Assembly (NCBI RefSeq): GCF_004331435.1
Contig: NZ_SJKA01000003.1
Span: forward strand, 248,001 to 312,000
Origin: Kribbella sindirgiensis
Lineage (GTDB): Bacteria; Actinomycetota; Actinomycetes; Propionibacteriales; Kribbellaceae
Length of the DNA: 64,000 bases
Direction: 5' to 3'
The position numbers were made by a program, and so were the translations under genes. Shown in pieces: positions 1 to 14,000 of this stretch; position 1 is the first letter of the stretch; every line of letters begins with the position of its first letter. The notes under the pieces were generated by a model that ran no database searches, was not told where the DNA came from, and saw nothing but the letters and a program-made list of their open reading frames with translations.

Positions 1-3000
1 GTCGGCTGCACGTCCGCCGCCGCGCCGCCGTCCTGTTCGGCCTTCACCTTCGGCGCGACCGTCTTGATCAGCCGCCCGAGTTCGTCGTTCACATACGTCG
101 AAGTGAAGTCCGCCTTCACCGCACCACTCGCGTTACCGCGCGGCGTCGTCATCGACGTCGCCAGCCCCCGCTGGTCGTACGTCCACGACGTCGTCATCGC
201 ACCCGAGGTGTTCTCGACCGTCTGCGACACCCTCCGCCCGGCCACATCAAACACATAACTGGTCGCCTCGGTCACCGTCGTCGGCCCAGCCAGCGTGGCA
301 TTCGACCAGTTACCGGTGTTCTCCGTGCGAGTCACATTGCCGGCCAAGTCATGGACATAAGTCGTCTTGCGCTGCAGACCCGCCGGATCGAGTGTCTGCG
401 ACGAGACCCGCCCCGCGGCATCGATCACGTACGTCGTCGTCGACTTGCCGTTATCCGTAAGCGCCGTGGTCCGGTTCCCCGCGCCGTCATACGTGTTCTG
501 CTCGAGCATGTACGGCCGCGTCGACCCGTCGGGGTCGTGGAATCCCTCGAGCTTCTTGGTCTTGAGTGTGTCGTCGAGGTTGTAGTCGTAGGTCACCAGC
601 CGGCCCATCGCGTCGACCTCGGCCCGCTTGCGTCCCGCCAGGTCGTACTGCGTCTTCGACCGGACCGCGTAGTCGATCCCCTCCCGCGGCCCGTCGACCG
701 GCGGGTTGTTCGGGTCGGCCGGGAGGTTCATGTCCCAGACCTCGGTCGGCGTGTTCAGATCGGAATACTTGTACTCGAACCGGTTCCCGTTCGCGTCCTC
801 CGACCACGTCCGGTTCCCCGCATCGTCGTACCCCTGCTGCGACAGCTTGCCATCGGCATCCACCGTCGACGCCAGCCGGTTGCGGTCGTCATAGGTCAAC
901 GTCGTGACCCGCGGCTCGTCCGACGTCTTCAAGTCCCTCGACGTAGTCCTCACCACGTTGCCGTCGGCGTCGTACTCGATCTCGGCCTTCTGCTGGTGCT
1001 GCTCCCCCGTCACCGCGTCCGTCGTCACCGGACCCGTGATCGCCGTGACCCGCGACATCTTGTCGTAGTCGTACGTCGTGACCACACCGCTCGGGTACGT
1101 GTCGGAGACCTGTGTCTCGGTCTTCTTCCGGCCGACCTCGTCGTAGGTGTACTTCGTGACCAGCCCCGATGGTGCGGTCGTCTGGACGAGCTCGCCGTAC
1201 TGGTCGTACAGGAACTGCGTCACCGCCGTCGTCGACGCATTCACCTTCACCGACTCGGTCTTCAGCAAACCCGGCGGCATCGCCTTCCCATCCGGACCGA
1301 GCTGCACACCATCGGTGTACGTGTAGAGCTTGACGCCGCCGTCCGGGCTCACATCGGAGGCCACGTCACCATATGTCGTCAGGTTCGAGTACCGCTTGTA
1401 CGTGTCGTCGGTCGCGCTGGCCGACCGCCCATCGCGCGAGGTGGCCAGCTTGTCCCACCGCGGATCAAGCGCCGGCCAAGCATCGTCGCCGTGGTAGGTC
1501 GTGTACGCCGTATGGCAATCGGTCCCGCCCGCGCCACGACAGGTCTTCGTCGACGTCACGTTGCCGCGATCGTCGTAGGTCATGCTGACCTCGCCACCCA
1601 TCTCACTGGTGACCTTGGTGAGCTGGCCGGTCTTGTCATGGGTGTAGCTGCGAATCGCGTACCCGGTATCAGGCCAATGCTGCGTGGTGCCCGCTGTCGG
1701 GGGCTGGCTTGTGTCCTCGCCGAGCGGCCGGCCGGTACGCCGCAGCCAGCCGCCGAGCAGGTCGTACTCGTAGACGTAGTCGCTGTTGTTCGGGCCCGTC
1801 ACGTGAACCACGCGGGACTTGGCGGCCTGGCTGGTCGAGCCGTTGCGGAGCTCCGGGGTGCCGACGGTCCAGGCTCCACCGTTCTCGTCGACGTACCTCT
1901 GGACCCGGTCGCTGGCCGGGTTGTACTCGATCTCGGCGGTCGTGCGACCACCCGCAGACGTGATCGAGGACAGTTGATCGGCCGCGTTGCGGCCCTGCTG
2001 CCAGTGCGCCGCCACGTCCCGGGTCGTGAGCGGGTGCGAGTACAGCGCGACCTCGTCGATCTGGCCGGTGAAGTACCGCACTGTTTGAGTCCCGTACGAC
2101 GGCCACGCGCTCGGCGCCGCCGCGACAGACGCACCGATCTCGTTCACCGCGAACTGCTCGTGGTCGACCACGCTCTGAGTGATCGTCCCGATCGCGACGC
2201 CGTCCAGGTACAGCGACTGCCGTGTCCCCATCGAACTCAGCACGACGTGATGCCACTGGTTGTCGTTCACTGCACCAGCGGACGTCATCGGCTCCGCGGT
2301 GCCGTGCCAGAACTGTCCACGAAGTTTGCCGTCAGCACCGACGTACAGCACCGGCATACCACCGGTCGTCGCGCTACCCAGCCGCTGCTTCTGATATCCC
2401 AGCAACGGCTGGCTCACTGCGCCGCTCGTCTTGAACCACAACTCGACCGCTTCGTCGCGGCTCCGTGTCGCCATACCGTCCGGCAAGGAAACCCAGGAGT
2501 TGCCGGTGAACGACACCGACTTGTCCGCGTCGCCCACACCGGTCAGCGGGCTGGCCTGGTTGAACTGAACGTTGGTATACGTGCCGAAGCCGTCGCGCCA
2601 CGACATGGCGGCTTCGTTCGTGGCGCCGGTGTCGGTGCCGTCGTCGGAGAACCGGAAGTAGCCGTCAGGCCGGCTGTCCATCACCGCACTGCGGTAGTGC
2701 GAGCCCTGCGCCGCGCCGTACGTCGTGCACTTCTGCTCCGCGTCACACGTCCTCGTCAGCACATCACCGGAGTACTCGTACGTCCATGTCAGCGCGGCGC
2801 CGTTCACCGGCTGCGTGCTGACCGACGCGACGTGCTTCTGGTCCGCAGTCCACGTGAACGTCAGCTTCCGGCCTGCGCCGTCCAGGCTCGCCGCGGACTC
2901 CAGTGTCCCGTCCGTGCGATAGGCCAGCGCGACCGGCTTGCCCTGGGTGCTGTAGATCTTGCTCAGCTTCCCCGCCCCGCGCGTGAATTCGTACTTCGTG

Positions 3001-5741
3001 CCAGGCACGATCTGGAGGGTCCACGGTCCGAGCGCGGAGACCCCCGTGAGGGTCGATTTCGTACCGCGAGGAGCGGCGTACGACCCATCAGCGTTCGCGC
3101 CGAACCGCACCTGACGACCATCCGGATAAGTCACCAGCGCGTACACGCCGGCCTCGGCCTCCACCCGCATGTCGTAGCGGCTCGACCAGCCCGCGCCGAA
3201 CATGCCGTCGCGCCGCGGATCCAGGCTGTTGTACGTCCGCGAAACGTTCAGCTCCGGTCCCGCCACCGGGATCACAGCTTCCAGCGCCGATGCCGTGTAG
3301 TTGCCGACCGCCGGGTCGTACGGCTTGTCCTGAGACTTGCCGTCGTTGTTCGCGATGTGGCCGGTGATCGAAGGCTGCGGCACGTCGGTGAACAACGTGA
3401 TCGGCTCGCCGATCGTGTGCTGTCCGTCGTTGTCCTGCACATAGATCTGCCACTGGTACTCGCGGTTCCACGCCAGCTTCCCGGCAGGCACCACCCAGGT
3501 CTTCGACGGCGTGTAGTCCCCGCTGAAGAAGCACCCCACCAGCGGGTCGTCGTCAACGACCTCACACACCCGGAAGCTGTACTTCAGCGTGCTCTCCGGC
3601 GCATCCGGGTCGATCCCTGACGCCCACACCTGCGGCGTCAACGTGTACGCCTGCGCCCCGTTCAACGGCCACACCTGCGACGGATCCACCACCGGCGGCA
3701 CGTTCTGGATCGTGATCAGCCGCGCCCCCGGTACGACGCCCCAATCGGTGTACCACCGATGGACCGTCGTATCTCGGTGCACCATCGAGAACTCGAGCTG
3801 ATAGTCGATCCCGGCGGCCGAACCCGGCAACGCAGCGACCGCAACATCCAGATTGATCTTGCCGCCATGCGGCACCGCCGCCGTCACCGGAGTGGACAGC
3901 ACCGCCCAGTTCTGCAGCTTCCCGTCCTTGTAGATCCGGTAGCTCATGTAGTCGTCGCCCGGCTGCCACGTGAATCCACCCAGGTTCGTGATCGTCATCG
4001 GGAACTTGCCGGCCTTGTCCTGCGTGACGTAGTCCTCCGGCTTCTGCGCCCGGAACGCGTACGCCGCGTGGTACGGCGAATGCGTCACTGCGAGCTTCGG
4101 CGGGTTCGCGGTGGTGATGCCCGCGAACTTCTTCCACGAGTACCGATCCGTGCGCTGGTTCGCGAACATCGCGAACCCGAAGTTCGACCGCTGACCATCC
4201 ACCAGGCTCTGCAGCCACGACACACCAGCCGCGTTGAACGGGATGTAGTCGTACGTCGGCTGGCACGCCGTCGTACCGGTCGTGTTCGACACGTAGCCAC
4301 GCGAGAAACTGCTCGACGCAATCACCGACGGCGTCGTCGCCGGCCCCGGATACTTCAAGCTCGGCAGCGGCGTGGACTGCCAACCCTCCATCGCGCCGTA
4401 CACATCCACCCGACGCGACGAACACGTATCCGCCTGGTAGTTGAACACCTCCAACTGCGCAGCGACGATCGTGTCGTACCGGAACGCATCCACCAGGCTC
4501 GGGAACGACAGCAACGACGTGTACGCGTTCCACCCGGACGCCGACGAACAGTTCGTCGTACCTGCCGCCGGACGGCACCCGATCTGCAAGTCGCTCGCAC
4601 CGCTGACCGAACCGTTCACGCCCGCACTGACCGCGTAGTTCGGCGTCACCCGGTCCGTCGGAATCACCGTCGGATCGATCCGCACCGGGAACACCCGCGC
4701 CCGATCGTCCAACCATGCGCTGTCGGCGGTGACCTTCAACGCCTGACGACCATCGACCGTGACCAGCTCGTACGACACCGCACTCGAGGTCGCGCGCACC
4801 TCGACCGTGTTCGAGTCCTCCATCACACCGGCCGGAATCCGCGCCCGCTCAGTCCCGTGCTCATCACTCAGCACGACCTCGCGACCCACCAGAGACGCCG
4901 TCAGGTTGTCGCTCAGACTCAGCGGGAACACGAACGAGCGGGGCGCCGCCGCCGACTTGAGGACGATCGTCTCCTTGATGCCCCGCGGCTGCGACTCCAG
5001 TTCAAGATCGGTACCCGGCATCAGCTCCGGGAAGAGCACCTTGCTGCCCGCCATCTGCCCAGCGACCGCACCCGCGCCGGACCCACCCCAGCCGACGGTG
5101 TGACCATCCCCCAACTCGATCCCCGCCACCGGATCCGCGTTCGCCTGCCCCGCGATCCAGGAATAGACCTCCGTCGAGATCGTCTCCCAGCCGCCACCGT
5201 CTCGCGGCTGCAGATTCGCGTTGATCTCCGCCCACGAACCATCAGGCTTCTCGAAGTTCAACGGCGCCGGCGACACCACACTCGTCTCCGTGCCGTCGGT
5301 GTTGACGAACGTCTGCGTGAACCGGTCCCGCTTCTCCGGCAACTCGCGACTCGTCTGCTTGTCGAACCCCTTCACCGCCGCCTGCTTCGACGGCAACGCC
5401 TGCACAGGCTTCGGCGCAGGCTGCTCAGCCGCGGCGTTCACCGGCTTGGCCGCAGTCACCGGGAACATGTCCCGTACCGTCGGCGGCTCGACCTTGTTCT
5501 GCCCCGCCGCAAGCGGCGCCGGCAGCTTCCCAGCACCGACACGCTGCGCGGGAGCCTTCGCCTCGCCCTTACCCGACATCGCCGCGGGCGGCACAGGCGG
5601 CGGCGAACCCGCAGCCACGGCCTCGGGCAACGCCGGGCCGATACCCGTCAACGGAACTGCCAAGGCAGCAAGAACCGCCACCGATTTCGCAACGCGAACC
5701 CGGCGGCGGGCAGCACGAGAAGACAGCCTGGACACGGCCAT
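1..5741 (-). CDS. Secreted YD-repeat (RHS-like) protein with DNRLRE and LamG domains, C-terminus beyond window
   Basis: About 1,913 codons are visible and the gene runs off the left edge. The ATG at 5741 follows an AGGGGG ribosome site. A signal peptide covers about residues 1-44 (basic N-terminus, then a hydrophobic run ending AVAAG). A DNRLRE-like domain lies at about 360-475, an RHS-entry segment with RTYNSLDPRRDGMFGAGWSS at about 805-855, and a LamG jellyroll at about 1015-1250. YD repeats of the type TYDxxGRxxxxT run from about 1290 to the edge. Such proteins form a large secreted shell that encloses a variable C-terminal domain, often a toxin. That domain and any immunity gene would lie left of position 1, so the role cannot be settled here. 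The long open frames on the opposite strand are its shadows. Confidence 0.9.
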   Translation of the reverse strand, partial: MAVSRLSSRAARRRVRVAKSVAVLAALAVPLTGIGPALPEAVAAGSPPPVPPAAMSGKGEAKAPAQRVGAGKLPAPLAAGQNKVEPPTVRDMFPVTAAKPVNAAAEQPAPKPVQALPSKQAAVKGFDKQTSRELPEKRDRFTQTFVNTDGTETSVVSPAPLNFEKPDGSWAEINANLQPRDGGGWETISTEVYSWIAGQANADPVAGIELGDGHTVGWGGSGAGAVAGQMAGSKVLFPELMPGTDLELESQPRGIKETIVLKSAAAPRSFVFPLSLSDNLTASLVGREVVLSDEHGTERARIPAGVMEDSNTVEVRATSSAVSYELVTVDGRQALKVTADSAWLDDRARVFPVRIDPTVIPTDRVTPNYAVSAGVNGSVSGASDLQIGCRPAAGTTNCSSASGWNAYTSLLSFPSLVDAFRYDTIVAAQLEVFNYQADTCSSRRVDVYGAMEGWQSTPLPSLKYPGPATTPSVIASSSFSRGYVSNTTGTTACQPTYDYIPFNAAGVSWLQSLVDGQRSNFGFAMFANQRTDRYSWKKFAGITTANPPKLAVTHSPYHAAYAFRAQKPEDYVTQDKAGKFPMTITNLGGFTWQPGDDYMSYRIYKDGKLQNWAVLSTPVTAAVPHGGKINLDVAVAALPGSAAGIDYQLEFSMVHRDTTVHRWYTDWGVVPGARLITIQNVPPVVDPSQVWPLNGAQAYTLTPQVWASGIDPDAPESTLKYSFRVCEVVDDDPLVGCFFSGDYTPSKTWVVPAGKLAWNREYQWQIYVQDNDGQHTIGEPITLFTDVPQPSITGHIANNDGKSQDKPYDPAVGNYTASALEAVIPVAGPELNVSRTYNSLDPRRDGMFGAGWSSRYDMRVEAEAGVYALVTYPDGRQVRFGANADGSYAAPRGTKSTLTGVSALGPWTLQIVPGTKYEFTRGAGKLSKIYSTQGKPVALAYRTDGTLESAASLDGAGRKLTFTWTADQKHVASVSTQPVNGAALTWTYEYSGDVLTRTCDAEQKCTTYGAAQGSHYRSAVMDSRPDGYFRFSDDGTDTGATNEAAMSWRDGFGTYTNVQFNQASPLTGVGDADKSVSFTGNSWVSLPDGMATRSRDEAVELWFKTSGAVSQPLLGYQKQRLGSATTGGMPVLYVGADGKLRGQFWHGTAEPMTSAGAVNDNQWHHVVLSSMGTRQSLYLDGVAIGTITQSVVDHEQFAVNEIGASVAAAPSAWPSYGTQTVRYFTGQIDEVALYSHPLTTRDVAAHWQQGRNAADQLSSITSAGGRTTAEIEYNPASDRVQRYVDENGGAWTVGTPELRNGSTSQAAKSRVVHVTGPNNSDYVYEYDLLGGWLRRTGRPLGEDTSQPPTAGTTQHWPDTGYAIRSYTHDKTGQLTKVTSEMGGEVSMTYDDRGNVTSTKTCRGAGGTDCHTAYTTYHGDDAWPALDPRWDKLATSRDGRSASATDDTYKRYSNLTTYGDVASDVSPDGGVKLYTYTDGVQLGPDGKAMPPGLLKTESVKVNASTTAVTQFLYDQYGELVQTTAPSGLVTKYTYDEVGRKKTETQVSDTYPSGVVTTYDYDKMSRVTAITGPVTTDAVTGEQHQQKAEIEYDADGNVVRTTSRDLKTSDEPRVTTLTYDDRNRLASTVDADGKLSQQGYDDAGNRTWSEDANGNRFEYKYSDLNTPTEVWDMNLPADPNNPPVDGPREGIDYAVRSKTQYDLAGRKRAEVDAMGRLVTYDYNLDDTLKTKKLEGFHDPDGSTRPYMLEQNTYDGAGNRTTALTDNGKSTTTYVIDAAGRVSSQTLDPAGLQRKTTYVHDLAGNVTRTENTGNWSNATLAGPTTVTEATSYVFDVAGRRVSQTVENTSGAMTTSWTYDQRGLATSMTTPRGNASGAVKADFTSTYVNDELGRLIKTVAPKVKAEQDGGAAADVQP

Positions 5742-5828
5742 GATGGATCCCCCTGGGGCGTGGACGACCTGCAACAGAAGCCTGGGGTCCCCCGACCCCG
5801 CCAGCGCCGGAACAGACCGTAGCACCAG

Positions 5829-6467
5829 GTGACCGTGCGCAGTCAGCAATCTGCAGCTTCCTGCAAATACCCGAAAATCTGTAACGCCGGCCGGCGAGGA
5901 GCGTCAGCGCGATACGTTCGGTTGGTGGGAGGTTCTGTTTACGTGTGGGTGGCGGCGGCTGGGGGTGAGCCGAGAGAGGCGGCCCATGGGCTGCTGCTTG
6001 AGCTTGCGGGGACGCTGGTCGGTCGGCCTCGGTTGAGTCACGACGAGGCGGGGCGGCCGGAGATCGCGGGGTTGGCGGTGAGTGTGGCTTACTCGGGGCG
6101 GTTGGTTGCGGTTGCTGCGGCGTACGGCGGGCCGGTGGGGGTTGATCTCGAGGAGATTCGGGGGCGGGAGGTCACGGGGCTGGCTGAGCGGTGGTTTGGT
6201 GTGCGGGAGTTGGAGTGGATGCGGCAGCAGGACGATGAGTTGGTCGCATTTCTTCAGTTGTGGACGGCTAAGGAAGCCGTTGGTAAGGCGCTGGGGGTTG
6301 GGTTGCGGGGGGCGGGGCTTCGGCGCGAGATGCCGCTGGGGGGTGGCGAGGTGGAGCCTGGCTTGGTGGTGACGCACCTGTCGTTGCCGGGTGCTGTGCT
6401 CGCGGTGGCGGCGCCGGTTGGCGTCGGGGTGTCACCTACTCTTGACCCGGCGTGTGTGCGTGGGTAA
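5829..6467 (+). CDS. 4'-phosphopantetheinyl transferase, Sfp type
   Basis: This enzyme transfers the phosphopantetheine arm of CoA to a serine of acyl- or peptidyl-carrier proteins in the cytoplasm. The family signatures are visible: VGVDLEEIRGRE (magnesium-binding Asp and Glu) and LWTAKEAVGKALGVGLRG. At about 210 residues it matches the compact Sfp/Gsp class. The frame opens with GTG at 5829, but the first 32 residues look non-homologous and have no good ribosome site. A start at GTG 5925, giving the usual VYVWVA opening, is likely. It is divergent from the YD-repeat gene. No carrier-protein partner is seen in the window. Confidence 0.85.
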   Translation: MTVRSQQSAASCKYPKICNAGRRGASARYVRLVGGSVYVWVAAAGGEPREAAHGLLLELAGTLVGRPRLSHDEAGRPEIAGLAVSVAYSGRLVAVAAAYGGPVGVDLEEIRGREVTGLAERWFGVRELEWMRQQDDELVAFLQLWTAKEAVGKALGVGLRGAGLRREMPLGGGEVEPGLVVTHLSLPGAVLAVAAPVGVGVSPTLDPACVRG

Positions 6468-6548: not shown

Positions 6549-9119
6549 ATGGAACTGACCCGACGCCAGACCCTCGGACTCGCGGCGGCTACCGTCGCCG
6601 GGTCGACGGTCGCCGCCACCACGACCGCGAGCGCGCACACCGATCGCTGGGTTCGCGACACCCTGCGCCGGATGACGCTGGAGCAGAAGGTCGGCCAGCT
6701 GTTCGTCTTGTATGCGTACGGCCCGGCGGCTGACACCGCCGACGCCCGCAACACCAGCCTGTACGGCGTGGCGACGCCGGCCGAGGTGGTCGCCAAGTTC
6801 AACCTCGGCGGCGTCATCTACTTCACGTGGACCGACTCGACGAAGGACCCGCAGCAGATCGCCGGTCTGTCGAACGGCCTGCAAAAGGCGTCGCTGACGA
6901 ACACCGGCATCCCGCTGCAGATCAGCACCGACCAGGAGTACGGCTCGGTGGTCCGGGTCGGACCGCCCGCGACCCAGTTCCCCGGCGGTATGGCGCTCGG
7001 CGCGACCCGCTCGGCCGGGTTCGCGCGCGCGGCGGGCGCGATCGCCGGGCGTGAGCTGAAGGCCCTCGGGATCACCACCGACTTCGCCCCGGACGCCGAC
7101 GTCAACGTGAACCCGCTCAACCCGGTGATCGGCGTCCGCTCGGCCTCCTCCGACCCGGCGCTCGCCGCGGAGATCGTCGCTGCCCAGGTCAAGGGTTACC
7201 AGCGCGACGGCCGGATCGTGTCGACCGCGAAACACTTCCCGGGCCACGGCGACACCGAGACCGACAGCCACGTCGGGATCCCGGAGATCCACCACACCCG
7301 CGAGGAGTGGACCGAGATCGATCTGCCGCCGTTCCAGGCCGCGATCCGGGCCGGCATCAAGTCGATCATGACCGCGCACATCGTGGTGAAGTCCCTCGAC
7401 CCGTCGGGCGATCCGGCGACGTTGAGCCGGCCGATCCTGACCGGGATCCTGCGGGAGCAGCTGCGGTTCGACGGCGTGGTGATCACCGACTCGCTGGGGA
7501 TGAAGGGCGTCCGGGACAAGTACGGCGACGCGGAGATCCCGCTCCGGGCGATCGAGGCGGGCGTCGACCAGCTGCTGATGCCGGTCGATCCGGGGCTGGC
7601 GTACAACTCGGTCCTCGACGCCGTCCGGAGCGGTCGCATCTCCGAGGCCCGCATCGACGAGAGCGTCACGCGCATCCTCGCGCTCAAGCACGAGGGCGGT
7701 CTCGTCGACCGTCCGTACGTCGACCTGTCCCGCATCGCCAAGGTCGTGGGGACGCCGGCCAACTACGCCGAGGCCCAGCGCATCGCGGACCGCAGTACGA
7801 CGCTTCTGCGCAACGACGCCGATCTGCTCCCGCTCTCCCCCGCGCCGCGCAAGATCGTGGTCACCGGGTACAGCCCCACCAACCTGGCGACCGCCCTGCA
7901 GAAGCGCGGCGCGACGACCACCGTGAAGGACACCGGCAGCACGCCGACCGACGCGAAGATCGCCGACGCCCTGGCCGCCTCGGCTGCTGCGGACCTGACC
8001 ATCGTGCTGACCAACAAGGCCTGGGACACCGAGGTCACCGACAAACTGGCCAAGCAGCAGAAGCTCGTCAACGGCCTGCTTGCGTCCGGCCGCCCGGTGA
8101 TCGTCGTCCCGGTCCGCGACCCGTACGACGTCGCGTACTTCGACGCCCCGGCGACCACGCTGGTCACGTACGGAAGCACCGTGGTGTCGATGGAAGCACT
8201 CGCCAAGGTGCTGTACGGCGAGATCGCGCCGACGGGCAAGCTGCCGGTGGAGATCCCCGCGAAGCCGGACCCGAACAGCCCGGACCCGGCACCGGTCCTG
8301 CACCCGTTCGGCCACGGGCTCTCGTTCGATCCGCGGGTGACCCGGCTGACAGTTGCCTCGTACAACATTCACGCCGGAGCCGGCGCGGACAACGTTTTCG
8401 AGCTCGACCGGACCGCGCGAGCGATCAAGGCCCTGGACGCGGACATCGTCGGACTGCAGGAAGTCGACGTGCACTGGGGCGACCGCAGCCAGTGGCTGGA
8501 CACGATCGCGGAACTGGCCGGAAAGCTCGGAATGTACCCGGCGTTCGCGCCGATCTACGACCTCGACCCGCCGGCCGCCGGTCAGCCGCGGCGTCAGTAC
8601 GGGGTGGGCGTGCTGTCCCGCTTCCCGTTGGTGCGGACGGAGAACCACCCGATCACGCGGCTGTCGACGCAGGACCCGGACCCGGTACCCGCTCCGGCGC
8701 CGGGGTTCCTCGAGGTCGAGGTCGATGTCCGCGGGCGCCGGGTGCACGTCTACTCCACCCATCTGGACTACCGCGGCGATCCGACCGTACGGACGATGCA
8801 GGTCGCCGACACCGTCAAGATCCTCGCCCAGGACCGGCGGCAGGATCTGCAGATTCTCGTGGGTGACTTCAACGCCGACGCCGCCGCGCCGGAGCTCGCC
8901 GGGCTCTGGACGCGGCTGACAGACTCATGGACGGCTGCCGCGGAAAACGTTGGCGGGCCGAACACCTATCCGGCGGTCGCCGCGAGCAAGCGGATCGACT
9001 TCGTCACCGTCGGCAGGGGCCTGACCGTCAGACGCGCCGAAGTACCCGCCGAGGTCCCGGTCGCCGACGCCGCCAGTGACCACCGCCCGATGATCGCCGA
9101 CCTCTCGTTCCGTTCCTGA
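6549..9119 (+). CDS. nagZ: Secreted GH3 beta-N-acetylhexosaminidase (NagZ-like) fused to a C-terminal EEP phosphodiesterase/nuclease domain
   Basis: The ATG at 6549 gives 856 residues starting with a Tat-type signal (TRRQTLGLAAATVAG); TTG 6537 and GTG 6540 are also in frame. Residues about 35-390 are a GH3 barrel with the NagZ hallmark KHFPGHGDT (228-236), DSH (239-241) and nucleophile Asp314 in VITDSLGM. A Rossmann-like GH3 C-domain follows to about 575. From about 600 a second enzyme begins: VASYNIHAG, LQEVD (Glu638), STHLD, GDFNAD (772-777) and SDHRP (843-847), the full EEP metal/catalytic set. NagZ removes GlcNAc from muropeptides. The EEP substrate is unknown. The gene heads a run with namZ and the AmiE-like gene. 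The junction is continuous and in frame, so this is a true fusion, not two overlapping genes. Confidence 0.92.
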   Translation: MELTRRQTLGLAAATVAGSTVAATTTASAHTDRWVRDTLRRMTLEQKVGQLFVLYAYGPAADTADARNTSLYGVATPAEVVAKFNLGGVIYFTWTDSTKDPQQIAGLSNGLQKASLTNTGIPLQISTDQEYGSVVRVGPPATQFPGGMALGATRSAGFARAAGAIAGRELKALGITTDFAPDADVNVNPLNPVIGVRSASSDPALAAEIVAAQVKGYQRDGRIVSTAKHFPGHGDTETDSHVGIPEIHHTREEWTEIDLPPFQAAIRAGIKSIMTAHIVVKSLDPSGDPATLSRPILTGILREQLRFDGVVITDSLGMKGVRDKYGDAEIPLRAIEAGVDQLLMPVDPGLAYNSVLDAVRSGRISEARIDESVTRILALKHEGGLVDRPYVDLSRIAKVVGTPANYAEAQRIADRSTTLLRNDADLLPLSPAPRKIVVTGYSPTNLATALQKRGATTTVKDTGSTPTDAKIADALAASAAADLTIVLTNKAWDTEVTDKLAKQQKLVNGLLASGRPVIVVPVRDPYDVAYFDAPATTLVTYGSTVVSMEALAKVLYGEIAPTGKLPVEIPAKPDPNSPDPAPVLHPFGHGLSFDPRVTRLTVASYNIHAGAGADNVFELDRTARAIKALDADIVGLQEVDVHWGDRSQWLDTIAELAGKLGMYPAFAPIYDLDPPAAGQPRRQYGVGVLSRFPLVRTENHPITRLSTQDPDPVPAPAPGFLEVEVDVRGRRVHVYSTHLDYRGDPTVRTMQVADTVKILAQDRRQDLQILVGDFNADAAAPELAGLWTRLTDSWTAAAENVGGPNTYPAVAASKRIDFVTVGRGLTVRRAEVPAEVPVADAASDHRPMIADLSFRS

Positions 9120-9128
9120 GGAGACCTC

Positions 9129-10412
9129 ATGAAGCGACGCAGTTTGCTCGCCGGCGCCGGTGCAGTCGCCGCCGCCCCGCTCATCGACGCACCCACCGCC
9201 CACGCCGCGCAGGCCGTGTCCAGCCGCAAGGTGATGACCGGCGCCGAGGTGCTCGCGAAGGACGACTGGCGCGCGCTGTCCGGCCAGAAGGTCGGCGTGA
9301 TCAGCAACCCGACCGGGATCCTGCCGGACTTCACACACCTCGTGGACACGATGCACGCGTCCGGCAAGGTGAACATCGTCGCGGTGTTCGGTCCAGAACA
9401 CGGTTTCCGCGGCAGCGCGCAGGCCGGCGGTTCGGAGGGCGACCACGTCGATCCGCGGACCGGGATCATGGTGTACGACGCGTACGGCGCGAACGCGGAC
9501 AAGCTGGTGAAGCTCTACACCCAGTCCGGCGTGGAAACCGTTGTCTTCGACATCCAGGACGTCGGCGCCCGGTTCTACACCTACATCTGGACGATGTTCG
9601 AGGCGATGCTCGCCGCGGTCCGGACCGGCGCGCGGTTCGTCGTACTGGACCGCCCGAACCCAGTCGGCGGGTACGCTCGCGGCCCGATGCTGAAACCCGG
9701 CTACACCTCAGGGGTCGGGAAGAAGGAGATCATCCAGCAGCACGGGATGACCGTCGGCGAGCTGGCCCGGATGTTCAACGCCGAGTACCTGCCGCTGGAG
9801 CCGAACGGCGGCCGGCTCAAGGAACTCAAGGTCATCGAGGCCAAGAACTGGAAGCGCGACCAGCTGTACGACGACACCGGTCTCACGTGGGTGATGCCGA
9901 GCCCGAACATGCCCACCCCGGACACCGCCCTGCTGTACCCGGGCCTGTGCCTGTTCGAGGCCACCAACATGTCCGAGGGCCGCGGTACGACGCGGCCGTT
10001 CGAGCTGATCGGCGCGCCGTACGTCGACTACAAGTGGGCGCAGGCCCTGCAGACCAAGAACATTCCGGGCGTCGCGTTCCGCGAGGCGTACTTCACGCCC
10101 ACCATCAGCAAGAACGCGAACGTGCTGTGCGGCGGCGTCCAGGTGCAGATCACCGACCCGCACCGGGTCGAGGCGATCACCGCGGCGACGCACATGATCG
10201 TCGAGGCCCGTAAGCTCTACCCCGAGTTCACCTGGCGGGCGGAGACCCCACCCGGCCGGTGGATCGACCTGCTCACCGGGTCCGATCGGTTCCGGACCAT
10301 GCTTTTGGCGGATGCGACCGCCGAGCAGATCGTGGCAGCCTGGAAGTCCGAGACCGACGCCTGGACTGCCCGGCGGGCGAAATATCTTCTGTACAAGGGC
10401 GCGCACCGATGA
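9129..10412 (+). CDS. namZ: Exo-beta-N-acetylmuramidase NamZ (DUF1343), secreted
   Basis: This 427-residue protein has an N-terminal KRRSLLAGAGAVAAAP export signal, probably Tat-dependent. Family hallmarks are VGVISNPTGI, FGPEHGFRG (Glu90, within the conserved active-site segment), DIQDVGARFYTY and VLDRPNPVGG. NamZ (YbbC in Bacillus subtilis) removes MurNAc from the non-reducing end of peptidoglycan chains and works with NagZ. A GAGGAG ribosome site precedes the ATG, only 9 bases after nagZ stops. The stop overlaps the next start (ATGA), showing co-translation with the serine hydrolase. The neighbourhood is the same as the B. subtilis mur-ami-nag-nam operon, which supports the assignment strongly. 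Confidence 0.92.
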   Translation: MKRRSLLAGAGAVAAAPLIDAPTAHAAQAVSSRKVMTGAEVLAKDDWRALSGQKVGVISNPTGILPDFTHLVDTMHASGKVNIVAVFGPEHGFRGSAQAGGSEGDHVDPRTGIMVYDAYGANADKLVKLYTQSGVETVVFDIQDVGARFYTYIWTMFEAMLAAVRTGARFVVLDRPNPVGGYARGPMLKPGYTSGVGKKEIIQQHGMTVGELARMFNAEYLPLEPNGGRLKELKVIEAKNWKRDQLYDDTGLTWVMPSPNMPTPDTALLYPGLCLFEATNMSEGRGTTRPFELIGAPYVDYKWAQALQTKNIPGVAFREAYFTPTISKNANVLCGGVQVQITDPHRVEAITAATHMIVEARKLYPEFTWRAETPPGRWIDLLTGSDRFRTMLLADATAEQIVAAWKSETDAWTARRAKYLLYKGAHR

Positions 10413-12133
10413 GACGGCTCGGCGCGCTCACGATAGCTTCGGCGGTGATACTCACGATGGCCTCCCCTGCCGTTGCTGGCAGCAACAACTCCGGCCGGTT
10501 CGACCGGCCGTACGACGGCTACGCGCCGAAGACCACGCTGCTGCGCGACGCGACCGCGGCGAAGGCCGGCCTGGACCCCGCGCCGATCGACGCCGCGCTG
10601 GCCCAGGTCGCCGGCTGGACCCAGCCGAGCGGTACGACGAAACCGTTGTTCGCCGGCGCTGTCACGCTGCTCGGCCACGACGGAAAGATCGTCACCCGGA
10701 CGGCCACCGGCCTGGCGCTGAAGTACGCCGACGGGCAGGGCACCGAGCTGCCGCCGGACCAGCAGATTCCGATGCGCACCGACACGATCTTCGACATGGC
10801 CTCGGTGTCGAAGCTGTTCACGTCGATCGTCGTGCTGCAACTGGTCGAGAAGGGCAAGGTCGACCTGGACGCGCCGATCGCGACCTACATCCCGGAGTTC
10901 GCGGAAAACGGCAAGGAAAACGTCACGGTCCGGCAAGCACTCACGCACACGAGTGGATTTCCGTCCTGGCTCCCGCTGTGGAGCGCCCAGCCCGACCCGG
11001 CGTCCCGTCTGCACATGGCGCTGACGGCCAAGCTCATCAACCCGCCGGGAAGCACCTATCTCTACAGCGATCTGAACCTGATCGCGCTCGGTGAGCTCGC
11101 CCATCGGGTGACCGGGAAAACGCTGGACAAGCTGGTCGCCGACGGGATCACGAAGCCGCTGCAGATGCGCGACACCGGCTACAACCCGGACCCGAAGAAG
11201 AAGCAGCGGATCGCGGCCACGGAGTACCAGGCCTCACCGCCGCGCGGCATGGTCTGGGGCGAAGTGCACGACGAGAACGCCTGGTCTCTCGGCGGTGTCG
11301 CCGGCCACGCGGGCGTCTTCAGCACGGCCGACGACATGGCCGTGCTCGCGCAGACGTTCCTGAACGGCGGGAGCTACCGCGGCGCCCGGATCCTCAAGGA
11401 ATCCTCGGTGACCGCGATGATCACGAACTTCAACCAGGGCTTCCCCGGCAACGACCACGGCCTCGGCTTCGAGCTGAACCAGCGCTGGTACATGGGCGGC
11501 CTGTCCGGACCGCGCGCGGCCGGCCACACCGGCTACACCGGGACGTCGATCGTGATCGACTTCGACTCCCGCTCGTTCGCGATCCTGCTCAGCAACCGCG
11601 TGCACCCGAGTCGCAACTGGGGCAGCAACAACCCGGCCCGACGCGCGGTCGCGCAGGGCCTCGCGCTCGCCCTCGGCGTCGGCCCGCGGCACGGCAAGGA
11701 CGCCTGGTTCTCCGGTACGACGGACAACGCGACCAGCACGCTCGACGCGAAGGTCGCCGTACCGGCCGGGGGCGCGAAGCTCGCGTTCGACCTGTTCGTC
11801 GACACCGAGGTCTCCGATCTGCTGTATCTGGAGACGTCCGCGGACGGAACGACCTGGACGAAGGTTCCGTTCTCGGTGCGCGACCGGGGCTCGGTGGTCG
11901 ACACCGACGGCTCGATCAGCGGTTCCGGCGACCGGCACTGGCACCAGGTGACCGCTGAGCTGAGCAGCGGCGAGCAGACCGTTCGCTGGCGCTACACCTC
12001 CGACCCGCTGTACCAGGGCCGCGGCGTGTACGTCGACGGTGTGAAGATCACGAGCGAGGCTGGTCTTCTTCTCGACGGTGAACGAACGCCTGAATCATTT
12101 ACCGCAACAGGTTGGAGACTTTCGCGTCGGTGA
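10409..12133 (+). CDS. Secreted beta-lactamase-family serine hydrolase, AmiE/YbbE-like, with C-terminal beta-sandwich
   Basis: The ATG at 10409 overlaps the namZ stop and gives 574 residues with a signal peptide (cleavage near SPAVAG, about residue 24). The penicillin-binding/beta-lactamase fold is shown by SVSK (Ser132, Lys135), YSDLN (219-223) and HTG (373-375). Residues about 440-560 form an extra beta-rich domain that is probably carbohydrate-binding. In B. subtilis the homologous gene beside nagZ and namZ encodes AmiE, which cuts the MurNAc-L-Ala amide of muropeptides. That role is inferred here from gene order; a D,D-carboxypeptidase or esterase is the alternative. The stop lies 35 bases before murR. 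Confidence 0.82.
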   Translation: MRRLGALTIASAVILTMASPAVAGSNNSGRFDRPYDGYAPKTTLLRDATAAKAGLDPAPIDAALAQVAGWTQPSGTTKPLFAGAVTLLGHDGKIVTRTATGLALKYADGQGTELPPDQQIPMRTDTIFDMASVSKLFTSIVVLQLVEKGKVDLDAPIATYIPEFAENGKENVTVRQALTHTSGFPSWLPLWSAQPDPASRLHMALTAKLINPPGSTYLYSDLNLIALGELAHRVTGKTLDKLVADGITKPLQMRDTGYNPDPKKKQRIAATEYQASPPRGMVWGEVHDENAWSLGGVAGHAGVFSTADDMAVLAQTFLNGGSYRGARILKESSVTAMITNFNQGFPGNDHGLGFELNQRWYMGGLSGPRAAGHTGYTGTSIVIDFDSRSFAILLSNRVHPSRNWGSNNPARRAVAQGLALALGVGPRHGKDAWFSGTTDNATSTLDAKVAVPAGGAKLAFDLFVDTEVSDLLYLETSADGTTWTKVPFSVRDRGSVVDTDGSISGSGDRHWHQVTAELSSGEQTVRWRYTSDPLYQGRGVYVDGVKITSEAGLLLDGERTPESFTATGWRLSRR

Positions 12134-12168
12134 CCCCATCTCGTGGTTCGTCGCCGTACCGTGCTGTT

Positions 12169-13056
12169 ATGAATTCGACAACCTCTCCAGAACCCACGGG
12201 GCCGCTGCTGGTCCGGGTCCGCGCGGTGATGCCCGCGCTGGCGCCGGCCGAGCAGCGGGTGGCGAACGCGGTCCTCGCGGATCCGGGCGGAGTGGCGGCG
12301 ATGACGATCTCCGAACTGGCCGAGGTGGCGTCCACCTCGGAGACCACGGTCATCCGGTTCTGCAAGCAGATCGGCGTCCCCGGCTACCCGCAGCTCCGGC
12401 TGCAACTGGCGGCCCAGTCGGCGCAGGAGAGTATCCGGCCGGAGGTCGGCGGGGACATCGAGCCGGGCGACTCACTGGCCGACGTGGTCAGCAAGGTCGC
12501 GTTCGCCGACGAGCGTGCGGTCCGCGAGACCGCGCAGCAGGTCGACGTGGACACCCTGGCCAAGGTCGTCGACGCGGTCGTGAACGCTCCCCGGGTCGAC
12601 CTCTACGGTTTCGCCGCGAGCGCGTTCGTGGCCCTCGACCTGCAGCAGAAGCTGCACCGGATCCGCCGGGTCGCGTTCGCCTGGTCGGACGTGCACATCG
12701 CGCTGACGAGTGCCGCGCTGCTCGGCGAGGGCGATGTCGCGATCGGCATCTCGCACACCGGCACCACGGTCGAGGTCGTCGAGGCACTCGAGGAGGCGGC
12801 CAAGCACGGCGCCACCACGGTCGCGGTGACGAACTTCCCGCGCTCCCCGCTGGCCCGGACCGCGGATCTGGTCCTCACCACGGCCGCCCGCGAGACGACG
12901 TACCGCTCGGGTGCGATGGCCAGCCGGATCGCGCAGTTGACCGTGATCGACTGCCTGTTCATCGGGGTCGCGCAGCAGGTACTGCCGGACGCGCGGAAAG
13001 CGCTGGAGGAAACCGCCTCGGCGGTCCGCGGGCACCGGCTGAAGGGGTCGGAGTAG
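12169..13056 (+). CDS. murR: RpiR-family transcriptional regulator with SIS domain, MurR-like
   Basis: The protein has 295 residues from the ATG at 12169. An upstream in-frame GTG region exists but looks unlike the family. Residues about 10-85 are the RpiR helix-turn-helix (LAPAEQRVANAVLADPG, then EVASTSETTVIRFCKQIG). Residues about 120-270 are a SIS sugar-phosphate-binding domain (YGFAASAFVALDLQQKL, GISHTGTTVEVVEAL). SIS regulators of this class bind sugar phosphates; beside murQ the ligand is probably MurNAc-6-phosphate. It lies between the muropeptide hydrolases and murQ. Its likely sites are the TTCAA/TTGAA dyads at 6492 and 13070. No clear ribosome site is seen, so the mRNA may be leaderless or translation coupled. 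Confidence 0.85.
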   Translation: MNSTTSPEPTGPLLVRVRAVMPALAPAEQRVANAVLADPGGVAAMTISELAEVASTSETTVIRFCKQIGVPGYPQLRLQLAAQSAQESIRPEVGGDIEPGDSLADVVSKVAFADERAVRETAQQVDVDTLAKVVDAVVNAPRVDLYGFAASAFVALDLQQKLHRIRRVAFAWSDVHIALTSAALLGEGDVAIGISHTGTTVEVVEALEEAAKHGATTVAVTNFPRSPLARTADLVLTTAARETTYRSGAMASRIAQLTVIDCLFIGVAQQVLPDARKALEETASAVRGHRLKGSE

Positions 13057-13069
13057 CAGCCTGTCAAGA

Positions 13070-13108
13070 TTCAACGGAATTGAAAATCCTTCAGTAGAAA
13101 ACTAACAT
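13070..13108 (+). promoter_or_regulatory. murQ promoter with overlapping operator-like inverted repeat
   Basis: TTGAAA (13080-13085) and TAACAT (13103-13108) are separated by exactly 17 bases, a near-canonical -35/-10 pair. Transcription would begin at about 13115-13116, on the GTG start, so the mRNA should be leaderless. The dyad TTCAA-N5-TTGAA (13070-13084) covers the -35 box, a suitable position for repression by MurR. The layout is read directly; regulator identity is inferred. Confidence 0.6.
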
Positions 13109-13115
13109 CGATCCC

Positions 13116-14000
13116 GTGACCTCACCGACCGAGCAGCGCAACCCGAGGACGCTGGCCATCGATGCGGTGGGCACGTCCGAAATCCTCCAACTGCTGAACA
13201 ACGAGGACGCCCTGGTCGCCGGGGCGGTCAGCGCGGTGATCCCGGAGCTGACCAAGGCGGTGGACGCTGCCGTCGAGGCGGTCCGTGGCGGCGGCCGGGT
13301 GCACTACTTCGGCGCCGGTACGTCGGGACGCCTCGCGACCCTGGACGCGGCCGAACTCCTCCCCACGTTCCACGTCCCGGACGGACTGGTGGTCGCCCAC
13401 CACGCCGGCGGCACCGAGGCGCTGCTCCGCGCGGTCGAGAACGTCGAGGACTCCGAGGAAGGCGGCGCCCGGGACGCGGCCGCCGTCACCGGTCAGGACC
13501 TCGTCGTCGGCCTCGCTGCTTCCGGGAGCACGCCGTACGTCGCCGGCGCCCTGAAAGCCGCCCGCGCGGCCGGGGCGACCACCGTGCTGGTCACGTCCAA
13601 CCCGGACGCCCCGTTGGCGCCGCTGGCCGATGTCGTGGTTGCCGCGGACACCGGGCCCGAGGTGATCGCCGGCTCGACCCGGCTGAAGGCCGGCACCGCG
13701 CAGAAGATGATCCTCAACGCGTTCTCGACGACGCTGATGATCAAGCTCGGCCGCACCTGGTCCAACCTGATGGTCGACCTGGTCGCCACCAACAAGAAGC
13801 TCCGCGGCCGGATGCTCCGCATCCTCGCCGAGGCCACCGGCGCCGAAGAGGCCGCCTGCGAGGCCGCTCTGGCCGAGGCCGACGGCGAACTCAAGCCCGC
13901 CCTCGTCCATCTCCTGACCGGTACGCCGATCCCGGCCGCCCGGGCCGCGCTCGAAGCCGCGCACGGCCGCGTAGCGACCGCCCTCGCCGAACTAGGCTGA
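13116..14000 (+). CDS. murQ: N-acetylmuramic acid 6-phosphate etherase MurQ
   Basis: MurQ removes D-lactate from MurNAc-6-phosphate to give GlcNAc-6-phosphate, the key cytoplasmic step of MurNAc recycling. The 294-residue protein has the SIS-etherase motifs FGAGTSGRLATLDAAEL, AASGSTPYVAGAL, EVIAGSTRLKAGTAQKMILN and VDLVATNKKL. The length is normal for the family. It starts with GTG at 13116, directly at the predicted transcription start. Its last 9 bases overlap the 3' end of the convergent LtrA gene. No MurP-type PTS transporter or MurNAc kinase is found beside it, so its substrate must be supplied by a gene elsewhere. Confidence 0.95.
   Translation: MTSPTEQRNPRTLAIDAVGTSEILQLLNNEDALVAGAVSAVIPELTKAVDAAVEAVRGGGRVHYFGAGTSGRLATLDAAELLPTFHVPDGLVVAHHAGGTEALLRAVENVEDSEEGGARDAAAVTGQDLVVGLAASGSTPYVAGALKAARAAGATTVLVTSNPDAPLAPLADVVVAADTGPEVIAGSTRLKAGTAQKMILNAFSTTLMIKLGRTWSNLMVDLVATNKKLRGRMLRILAEATGAEEAACEAALAEADGELKPALVHLLTGTPIPAARAALEAAHGRVATALAELG

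What the first reader, a model, noticed from the sequence alone, without database searches (positions are those of the whole stretch)
6549..9119. NagZ-type glycosidase fused to a complete EEP phosphodiesterase/nuclease domain
One uninterrupted frame carries the GH3 NagZ active site (KHFPGHGDT, Asp314) and, after about residue 600, all EEP metal motifs (N606, E638, GDFNAD, SDHRP). NagZ enzymes are not normally joined to EEP enzymes. In a muropeptide-recycling cluster the second domain could act on phosphodiester-linked wall polymers (teichoic acid stubs), on lipid or nucleotide-linked wall products, or on DNA trapped in cell debris. A secreted two-headed enzyme releasing GlcNAc and phosphate together would be new.
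Basis: partly seen in the sequence, partly recalled or inferred. Interest (0 to 1): 0.72.

Follow-up and report, generated by a model that had tools for sequence, protein, structure and literature searches.

The report
Wall-recycling glucosaminidase fused to a phosphodiesterase
A soil actinobacterium (Kribbella) makes one apparently exported protein that joins a cell-wall sugar-cutting enzyme to a metal-dependent phosphate-bond-cutting enzyme, and some relatives in other bacteria keep the same two enzymes side by side, which suggests that phosphate-linked decorations are stripped from wall sugars before these are eaten or recycled.

Summary
Window 6549-9119 (+) is one uninterrupted 856-residue frame: export-signal-like start, two-domain GH3 N-acetylglucosaminidase (closest solved relative Bacillus YbbD/NagZ), six-residue linker, complete EEP domain. 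It is no assembly error: 23 of 37 Kribbella-genus genomes carry it in one frame, both halves look purifying-selected, and the fusions form one clade.

The strict fusion was found only in Kribbella, not in several genera. The partnership is wider: the same EEP subfamily sits beside NagZ as a separate gene in other actinobacteria, several Bacilli and one haloarchaeon, and is fused to an AmiE-like protein in one Bacilli genome. In a Bacilli sample, without the genome that served as its centre, 5 of 20 EEP genes lie within 10 kb of a GH3 gene against 0.22 expected. Most Streptomyces copies stand alone.

Best reading: the EEP half is a sugar-6-phosphodiesterase, akin to the GlcNAc-PDase group of PMC10704324, removing a phosphodiester from C6 of a terminal GlcNAc or MurNAc so that exo-acting NagZ and NamZ can proceed. 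Family side supported; substrate inferred. A nuclease is less likely, not excluded.

The parts
6549..6638 (+). N-terminal export signal with a twin-arginine-like start (MELTRRQTLGLAAATVAGSTVAATTTASAH)
   Evidence: Read directly from the sequence; no signal predictor was run, assignment as Tat-type is inference.
6675..7682 (+). GH3 N-terminal catalytic domain (residues 43-378), with KHFPGHGDT, Asp239/His241 and nucleophile Asp314
   Evidence: Pfam PF00933 281.8 bits; best solved relative YbbD/BsNagZ 3bmx, E 1.4e-83. Catalytic roles of the dyad and nucleophile are recalled; positions read from the alignment.
7800..8324 (+). GH3 C-terminal domain (residues 418-592)
   Evidence: Pfam PF01915 72.7 bits.
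8328..8345 (+). Six-residue junction DPRVTR between the GH3 end and the EEP start; in the separate-gene relatives this place holds a stop codon and a signal-peptide-like EEP start
   Evidence: Comparison with L221, L222 and L213.
8346..9116 (+). EEP phosphodiesterase domain (residues 600-856); metal-site residues N606, E638, D773, N775, D844, H845, and conserved H738
   Evidence: PF03372 89.3 bits and PF23226 34.2 bits; these residues are invariant in 107 EEP domains except that one truncated row lacks two positions; AlphaFold2 model pLDDT 95.7.
9129..10412 (+). NamZ-type exo-beta-N-acetylmuramidase, next gene of the cluster
   Evidence: PF07075 251.5 and PF20732 181.3 bits.
10409..12133 (+). 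Beta-lactamase-fold serine hydrolase (AmiE/PBP4B-like) with a C-terminal MAM-like domain
   Evidence: PF00144 249.6 bits, PF20773 35.4 bits; NF002968 PBP4B 192 bits, below its cut-off of 385. The AmiE name is recalled by analogy with the B. subtilis ybb cluster.
12178..13056 (+). MurR/RpiR-type regulator (HTH + SIS)
   Evidence: PF01418, PF01380; the MurR equivalog NF012026 scores 132.1, below its cut-off of 408.
13116..14000 (+). MurQ, N-acetylmuramic acid 6-phosphate etherase
   Evidence: TIGR00274 308.4 bits, cut-off 302.

Best explanation
The protein is an exported bifunctional wall-amino-sugar enzyme. Its GH3 half is a YbbD-type NagZ that takes single GlcNAc residues off non-reducing ends. 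Its EEP half is a two-metal phosphodiesterase that most likely removes a phosphodiester substituent from C6 of a terminal N-acetylhexosamine. Candidates are the stub of a wall polymer on MurNAc O6, or a polyol-phosphate or phosphoethanolamine/phosphocholine-like group on GlcNAc O6. NagZ and NamZ work from chain ends, so a 6-O-phosphodiester would be a roadblock; EEP clears it. NagZ, NamZ and the AmiE-like enzyme then reduce the fragment to GlcNAc, MurNAc and peptide, and MurQ handles MurNAc-6-phosphate inside the cell. Shown: domains, catalytic residues, fusion, conservation, selection, linkage above chance in a Bacilli sample. Inferred: export, activity, substrate, and order of steps. In Kribbella the fusion appears to have replaced the stop codon and signal peptide of a separate downstream EEP gene.
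For: Domains and intact metal site. PF23226 (PGAP2IP) matches 50 of 50 members of the EEP alignment at E<=0.001 and only 3 of 18 PF03372 places in the own genome, this one included. PMC10704324 (parts 1-3 of 7 and Discussion read): an EEP group clustering with Cwh43p/PGAP2IP cuts phosphocholine and phosphoethanolamine from C6 of GlcNAc, apparently only where the GlcNAc is terminal, and a beta-hexosaminidase gives signal only afterwards. The structure model is close to the sugar-6-phosphatase 4c1r (Z 26.0), although unnamed EEPs rank above it. Linkage: NagZ-EEP-NamZ-AmiE-MurR-MurQ with EEP as a separate gene in L213, L221 and L222; EEP-NagZ pairs in 8 Bacilli loci, the only families found in three or more of these loci; EEP-FIMAH-AmiE fusion in L192 beside NagZ, NamZ and GH84. 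Adjacency test in Bacilli: 6 of 22 EEPs within 10 kb of a GH3 against 0.25 expected; without G343, the centre of the sample and itself picked for having the pair, 5 of 20 against 0.22 (P 4e-6), or 3 events after collapsing three near-copies (P 0.0016). A distant EEP is fused to a phosphodiester glycosidase (NAGPA) in L219, and a NAGPA gene lies in the L192 cluster. Kribbella walls carry teichuronic or teichulosonic acid (PMC6113628 passages); wall glycopolymers are frequently tied to MurNAc O6 by a phosphodiester, and GlcNAc can also carry them (PMC7831098 passages). Both halves evolve at dN/dS 0.10-0.26.
Against: No activity was measured. The GlcNAc-PDase sequences themselves were not available, so closeness to that group rests on the PGAP2IP profile as proxy; the two other PF23226 places in the own genome score higher (49.0, 40.6 against 36.7 bits), and at least one linked EEP (L104, 20.1 bits) is below the curated cut-off. 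The same EEP subfamily stands alone in 29 Streptomyces loci: no NagZ, NamZ or AmiE over the thresholds (three have weak beta-lactamase-fold matches of 82-94 bits); the neighbour families most shared there are MFS, carbamoyltransferase, epimerase, TetR, XdhC and the like, with a polysaccharide deacetylase in 5 of 29. In the 296-genome class sample 6 genomes have a close EEP, and only 2 of these (own fusion, G103) are joined to the cluster. 15 or 16 of the sampled Bacilli EEPs are not near a GH3. 14 of 37 Kribbella genomes lack the fusion, and L223 (G004) has NagZ-NamZ with no EEP between. NAGPA lies within 10 kb of an EEP in only 2 of 25 EEP-bearing genomes. A haloarchaeon carries the pair (L087; 1 of 145 of its class has this EEP), which fits scavenging of foreign walls but not self-recycling. 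The 8 Bacilli pairs have no NamZ match within their loci, which favours a GlcNAc rather than a MurNAc substrate there.
Confidence: 0.5

Rival explanations
1. The EEP half is a secreted DNase/RNase: the fusion serves scavenging of dead cells, one half eating wall sugar, the other eDNA.
For: EEP superfamily contains many nucleases; the fold model also aligns well to Tdp2 (Z 24.7), nocturnin (24.1) and AP endonucleases (21-22).
Against: ExeM/NucH DNase model 15.4 bits against cut-off 300. The 10 distinct PDB sequences found by the profile at E<=0.001 are unnamed EEPs and sphingomyelinase-type chains, no DNase. PGAP2IP profile matches 50 of 50. Partners found act on amino sugars, not nucleic acid.
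Confidence: 0.15
2. The EEP half is a sugar-6-phosphate phosphomonoesterase (like Bt3783): it removes plain 6-phosphate left on MurNAc or GlcNAc after the wall polymer has gone.
For: 4c1r, mannosyl-6-phosphatase Bt3783, aligns at Z 26.0. Same genomic context as the main reading.
Against: PGAP2IP profile and the biochemically tested neighbours of that group point to diesterase action (PMC10704324). Unnamed EEPs rank above 4c1r.
Confidence: 0.15
3. The EEP half is a lipid phosphodiesterase (sphingomyelinase/phospholipase C-like) that attacks membranes or lipoteichoic acid of other cells while the GH3 half attacks the wall.
For: Sphingomyelinase-type chains are among the few PDB sequences found by the profile (E 7e-7 to 7e-4); human neutral sphingomyelinase aligns at Z 25.5.
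Against: Weaker than the unnamed EEPs (4ruw E 2.3e-15). Partners are wall-sugar enzymes with intracellular MurQ/MurR, i.e. catabolism rather than attack.
Confidence: 0.1
4. The fusion is a co-secretion accident: two independent exported enzymes of one operon fused by loss of a stop codon, with no shared substrate.
For: In L221 and L222 the EEP start overlaps the end of the GH3 gene, so a small deletion suffices. Streptomyces EEPs are solo. Some Kribbella do without EEP in the cluster.
Against: Linkage in Bacilli above chance, a second fusion partner from the same pathway (L192), purifying selection on both halves.
Confidence: 0.1

Closest known systems
Bacillus subtilis YbbD/NagZ (PDB 3bmx, 4gyj, 3lk6) and the ybb muropeptide-rescue cluster (nagZ, namZ, amiE, murQ, murR; organism and cluster content recalled)
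   Same: Two-domain GH3 aligned over residues 35-593; same kinds of partner, NamZ, AmiE-like, MurR-like, MurQ.
   Different: The YbbD chain aligned ends with the GH3 part; the window protein continues into an EEP domain.
GlcNAc-PDase group of the EEP superfamily (Fossa et al. 2023, PMC10704324)
   Same: EEP with the same six metal-site residues and a signal peptide; on the PGAP2IP/Cwh43 side of the superfamily; in the published assay its action is coupled to an added beta-hexosaminidase.
   Different: The tested members are single-domain proteins of the 'Clostridia group'; the words fused, fusion, peptidoglycan and MurNAc do not occur in the held main text. Sequence relation to this domain could only be tested through the PGAP2IP profile.
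Bt3783 mannosyl-6-phosphatase (PDB 4c1r)
   Same: EEP fold with sugar-C6 phosphate specificity by its title; Z 26.0.
   Different: Monoesterase on mannose by its title; 21% identity.
Sphingomyelinase C (PDB 2ddr, 7cne) and neutral sphingomyelinase (8j2f)
   Same: EEP fold; weak profile matches.
   Different: Lipid substrates; weaker similarity than unnamed bacterial EEPs.

Membership tests
GH3 / NagZ (exo-beta-N-acetylglucosaminidase) | GH3 N- and C-terminal domains above Pfam cut-off | tested here: met
   281.8 and 72.7 bits.
GH3 / NagZ (exo-beta-N-acetylglucosaminidase) | KHFPGHGDT motif, Asp nucleophile and Asp-His dyad aligned with BsNagZ | tested here: met
   D314, D239, H241 in the alignment to 3bmx; catalytic roles recalled.
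GH3 / NagZ, NCBIfam equivalog NF003740 (single-domain beta-N-acetylhexosaminidase) | Score over curated cut-off 207 | tested here: not met
   154.5 bits; therefore called NagZ-like, YbbD type.
EEP superfamily (PF03372) | Profile above cut-off and complete metal/catalytic set N, E, H, D-x-N, D-H | tested here: met
   89.3 bits; N606 E638 H738 D773 N775 D844 H845.
PGAP2IP/Cwh43-type EEP (PF23226) | Score over curated cut-off 27 | tested here: met
   34.2 bits. Of the relatives, 50 of 50 match at E<=0.001, but L104 with 20.1 bits is below the cut-off.
GlcNAc-PDase group (Fossa et al. 2023) | Clustering with the characterised sequences | tested here: inconclusive
GlcNAc-PDase group (Fossa et al. 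2023) | Hydrolysis of GlcNAc-6-PC/PE | not testable with these tools
   Needs an assay.
ExeM/NucH extracellular endonuclease (NF033681) | Score over curated cut-off 300 | tested here: not met
   15.4 bits.
Sphingomyelinase C | Sphingomyelin hydrolysis / membership of that clade | tested here: inconclusive
   Weak profile matches only (E 7e-7 to 7e-4); no clade test with sphingomyelinases.
Muropeptide-rescue cluster | NagZ, NamZ, AmiE-like, MurR-like and MurQ genes in a row | tested here: met
   Window 6549-14000, all on +.

The most novel reading that the evidence does not exclude
The EEP half is a dedicated detaching enzyme of peptidoglycan catabolism: it cuts the phosphodiester that ties teichuronic/teichulosonic or teichoic polymers to O6 of MurNAc (or an equivalent diester on GlcNAc), so that exo-acting NagZ and NamZ can digest polymer-bearing wall. 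It would be a recurrent and, as far as my searches went, undescribed partner of NagZ/NamZ clusters in actinobacteria, Bacilli and a haloarchaeon.
Probability: 0.3. Interest if true: 0.78.

Novelty: new variant of a known kind. Interest (0 to 1): 0.6.

Why it matters
How bacteria deal with wall-polymer stubs on MurNAc when they recycle or eat Gram-positive peptidoglycan is, to my knowledge (recalled), poorly explained. A NagZ-EEP partnership, fused in Kribbella and with EEP joined to an AmiE-like enzyme in a Bacilli genome, names a concrete candidate enzyme and makes the question testable with one purified protein. It would also extend the GlcNAc-6-phosphodiesterase activity, known from a gut metagenome screen and proposed as a glycan-analysis tool (PMC10704324), to a natural setting and give a ready-made two-step enzyme.

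Tried and rejected
Frameshift or assembly error at about 8340: rejected, one frame in 23 of 37 Kribbella-genus genomes, and dN/dS 0.10-0.26 on both halves (7 of the 10 named Kribbella fusion loci used).

"Fusion in several genera": rejected as stated. tblastn listed full-length matches in Bacilli, Ruania, Micromonospora and a haloarchaeon, but these are separate neighbouring genes, in either order. Sampling limits: one search scored 3 and only 2 candidates per genome, and not all matches were listed; a fusion would have ranked high. Phyla other than those of the window, G343 and G347 were not surveyed.

A long frame around an EEP in L216 (G202) is an overrun in high-GC DNA, not a fusion, as judged from the translation.

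Adjacency test: my first figure (6 of 22, P 3e-7) counted G343, which was the centre of the sample and had been picked for carrying the pair. Without it: 5 of 20, P 4e-6, or 3 events, P 0.0016. The test is weaker than first computed but stands; I left the confidence unchanged.

Nuclease reading: lowered, not excluded.

NAGPA as a general partner: not supported, within 10 kb of an EEP in 2 of 25 genomes.

Streptomyces neighbours as a clue to the substrate: 10 representatives of shared families scanned, no clear lead.

MurNAc kinase in the cluster: the 3 BcrAD_BadFG places of the own genome lie on other contigs.

Literature: no paper on a GH3-EEP fusion showed up in the listings (listings seen; papers not read except as named). 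One search (Bt3783) gave nothing useful. The B. subtilis NamZ and muropeptide-rescue papers did not appear; what I say of them is recalled.
Full report
WHAT IS THERE. Window 6549-9119 (+) is one open frame of 856 residues. Pfam places GH3 N at 43-378, GH3 C at 418-592 and Exo_endo_phos at 603-845, all over their cut-offs, and a second EEP model, PGAP2IP C-terminal, at 600-765 with 34.2 bits against a cut-off of 27. The GH3 part aligns from residue 35 to 593 with YbbD/NagZ (3bmx, E 1.4e-83). The start MELTRRQTLGL... looks like a twin-arginine export signal (sequence only, no predictor run). The genes behind it are NamZ, a beta-lactamase-fold AmiE/PBP4B-like enzyme, a MurR/RpiR-type regulator and MurQ, all on the same strand. 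The genome is taken to be Kribbella: the best named relatives are Kribbella at up to 95% identity. The GH3 part fails the NCBIfam equivalog of single-domain NagZ (154.5 of 207 bits), so "YbbD-type NagZ-like" is the accurate name.

IT IS REAL AND SELECTED. Of 58 genomes searched as relatives, 37 are of the genus, own one included; 23 of these 37 have the whole protein in one frame, 14 do not; none of the 21 others of the order has it. Ten named Kribbella contigs have it too, of 79 loci fetched. In seven pairwise comparisons (7 of those 10 loci) dN/dS is 0.10-0.24 for the GH3 half and 0.10-0.26 for the EEP half. N606, E638, H738, D773, N775, D844 and H845 are present in all of 107 distinct EEP domains gathered, except that one truncated row lacks the first two positions.

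HOW THE FUSION AROSE. In two Kribbella genomes (L221, L222) EEP is a separate gene whose ATG overlaps the end of the GH3 gene by seven bases, stop included, and which begins with a signal-peptide-like stretch; in L213, from another family of the class, it starts 11 bases behind the GH3 stop, again with a signal-like start. In the window protein GH3 ends in HGLSF and EEP begins at LTVASYN, with DPRVTR between. So stop codon and signal peptide seem to have been lost. In an EEP tree of 107 rows the Kribbella fusions form one clade (23 rows, 100/99), next to L221/L222 (that join only 81/27) and L213 (99/92). In L223 (G004) the cluster has NagZ and NamZ and no EEP between them.

THE PARTNERSHIP IS WIDER THAN THE FUSION. 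Loci found with the whole protein as query (so chosen for having both halves) show separate neighbouring genes: EEP then GH3 in Fictibacillus, Neobacillus, three Thalassobacillus, Halobacillus, Alkalihalobacillus and a Bacillus sp. (8 loci; the two genes are the only families found in three or more of the 8) and in two Ruania; GH3 then EEP in Micromonospora, Geomicrobium (GH3 frame broken there) and a haloarchaeon; EEP near NagZ and NamZ in two Virgibacillus. A sample not chosen for GH3 gives the fairer test. Of 398 genomes of the class of G343, 21 have an EEP match at E<=1e-35, 22 places in all. These 21 genomes hold 39 GH3 matches at E<=1e-30. Six EEPs lie within 10 kb of a GH3 against 0.25 expected. 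G343 itself, the centre of the sample, had been picked for having the pair; without it 5 of 20 against 0.22 expected (P 4e-6), and 3 events if three near-copies count once (P 0.0016). The expected number treats gene positions as random, and 15 of these 20 EEPs are not near a GH3. One member of the sample, L192, is a 909-residue EEP-FIMAH-beta-lactamase (AmiE-like) fusion, divergent from NagZ, NamZ and a GH84. The label "fused" needs two changes on the tree and "linked" ten. In the 296-genome sample of the window's class 6 genomes have an EEP at E<=1e-55: the own fusion, G103 with EEP inside the cluster, and four without NagZ, NamZ or AmiE in reach. In the haloarchaeal class 1 of 145 genomes has one at E<=1e-35, the genome it was found in. 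A distant EEP in L219 is fused to FIMAH and a phosphodiester glycosidase (NAGPA), and a NAGPA gene 52% identical lies in the L192 cluster; but NAGPA is within 10 kb of an EEP in only these 2 of 25 EEP-bearing genomes searched.

AGAINST: THE LONERS. In 29 Streptomyces loci (some short) the same EEP subfamily has no NagZ, NamZ or AmiE partner over the thresholds; three have weak beta-lactamase-fold matches of 82-94 bits. Apart from EEP the most shared neighbour family there occurs in 12 of 29 loci and is an MFS transporter; of ten shared families scanned only a polysaccharide deacetylase (5 of 29) has a link to amino sugars. The motif set V[DH]xHWxxRS, [RK]LST, PxP...PGF is found in 77 of 107 EEPs: 23 fused, 19 linked, 35 solo. 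It marks a subfamily, not the linkage.

WHICH EEP. Of 18 EEP places in the own genome only 3 match the PGAP2IP model, this one included, and it is the weakest of the three; of 14 control genomes 1 has a match, against 10 for the general EEP model. All 50 members of the EEP alignment match it at E<=0.001, though L104 stays below the curated cut-off. Profile search of the PDB finds unnamed bacterial EEPs (4ruw E 2.3e-15, 3teb, 3g6s) and, weakly, sphingomyelinase-type chains, and no DNase (10 distinct sequences). The AlphaFold2 model (pLDDT 95.7) aligns best with 4ruw (Z 28.5), then 3l1w, 3g6s, 3mpr, then mannosyl-6-phosphatase Bt3783 4c1r (26.0), neutral sphingomyelinase (25.5), Tdp2 (24.7) and nocturnin (24.1). 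Fold alone therefore does not decide. The full-length model has mean pLDDT 88.2 and pTM 0.76; I drew no conclusion from the domain arrangement.

MECHANISM. Fossa et al. 2023 (PMC10704324; I read parts 1-3 of 7 and the Discussion) characterised an EEP group that clusters with Cwh43p and PGAP2IP: it removes phosphocholine or phosphoethanolamine from C6 of GlcNAc and seems to need the sugar to be terminal; alanine changes in five of the six metal-site residues cut activity strongly, the glutamate being the exception; in its assay a beta-hexosaminidase acts after the phosphodiesterase. The window protein looks like a natural form of that pair. The wall offers 6-O-phosphodiesters: wall glycopolymers are frequently tied to O6 of MurNAc by a phosphodiester, and GlcNAc can also be modified (PMC7831098, passages), and the main wall polymer of Kribbella is teichuronic or teichulosonic acid (PMC6113628, passages). 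I infer that EEP removes such a group from a terminal amino sugar so that NagZ and NamZ can continue. Whether the sugar is GlcNAc or MurNAc, and which side of the phosphorus is cut, is open; the Bacilli pairs without NamZ nearby speak for GlcNAc there.

NOVELTY. The parts are known families; the joining of NagZ to EEP and the NagZ/NamZ/AmiE-EEP linkage did not appear in the listings of my literature searches (open-access library, slash-written name not searchable). I rate it a new variant of a known kind, with an untested but specific enzymatic prediction.

Noticed in passing
L192:7363-10089 (-), G666: 909-residue EEP-FIMAH-beta-lactamase/AmiE-like fusion, divergent from NagZ, NamZ and GH84: a second, independent EEP fusion with a partner of the same pathway.
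   Followed up: partly
L219:9309-11582 (+), G351: EEP-FIMAH-NAGPA (phosphodiester glycosidase) in one 758-residue frame; a related NAGPA gene lies at L192:17324-18472.
   Followed up: partly
window 3-5849 (-): 1949-residue frame running off the window edge with RHS repeats, DUF6531 and a Laminin_G_3 domain.
   Followed up: no
window 5919-6467 (+): 4'-phosphopantetheinyl transferase-like gene directly upstream (PF01648), kept directly upstream in L039, L040, L042 and L046 of the ten named Kribbella loci.
   Followed up: no
L027-L032, L221-L223: Some Kribbella carry tandem NagZ-like GH3 genes (the second about 60-65% identical to the window GH3); no such copy was listed for the window genome.
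   Followed up: no
L222:12508-13422 (-): A second, distant EEP lies upstream of the tandem GH3 genes in the same Kribbella genome that has the separate close EEP.
   Followed up: no
L231:8810-9655 (+) in the own genome: Another PGAP2IP-type EEP of the own genome lies beside ThuA-ricin-lectin, BNR and NlpC/P60 proteins.
   Followed up: no
L195:8232-10309 (+), G710; L193:8166-12007 (+), G486: EEPs without NagZ nearby sit next to a GH18 gene (L195) or between a polysaccharide deacetylase and a sodium:solute symporter (L193), again amino-sugar company.
   Followed up: no
L104:7890-9913 (+), Geomicrobium: The GH3 gene beside EEP is split over two frames (possible frameshift); left as found.
   Followed up: no
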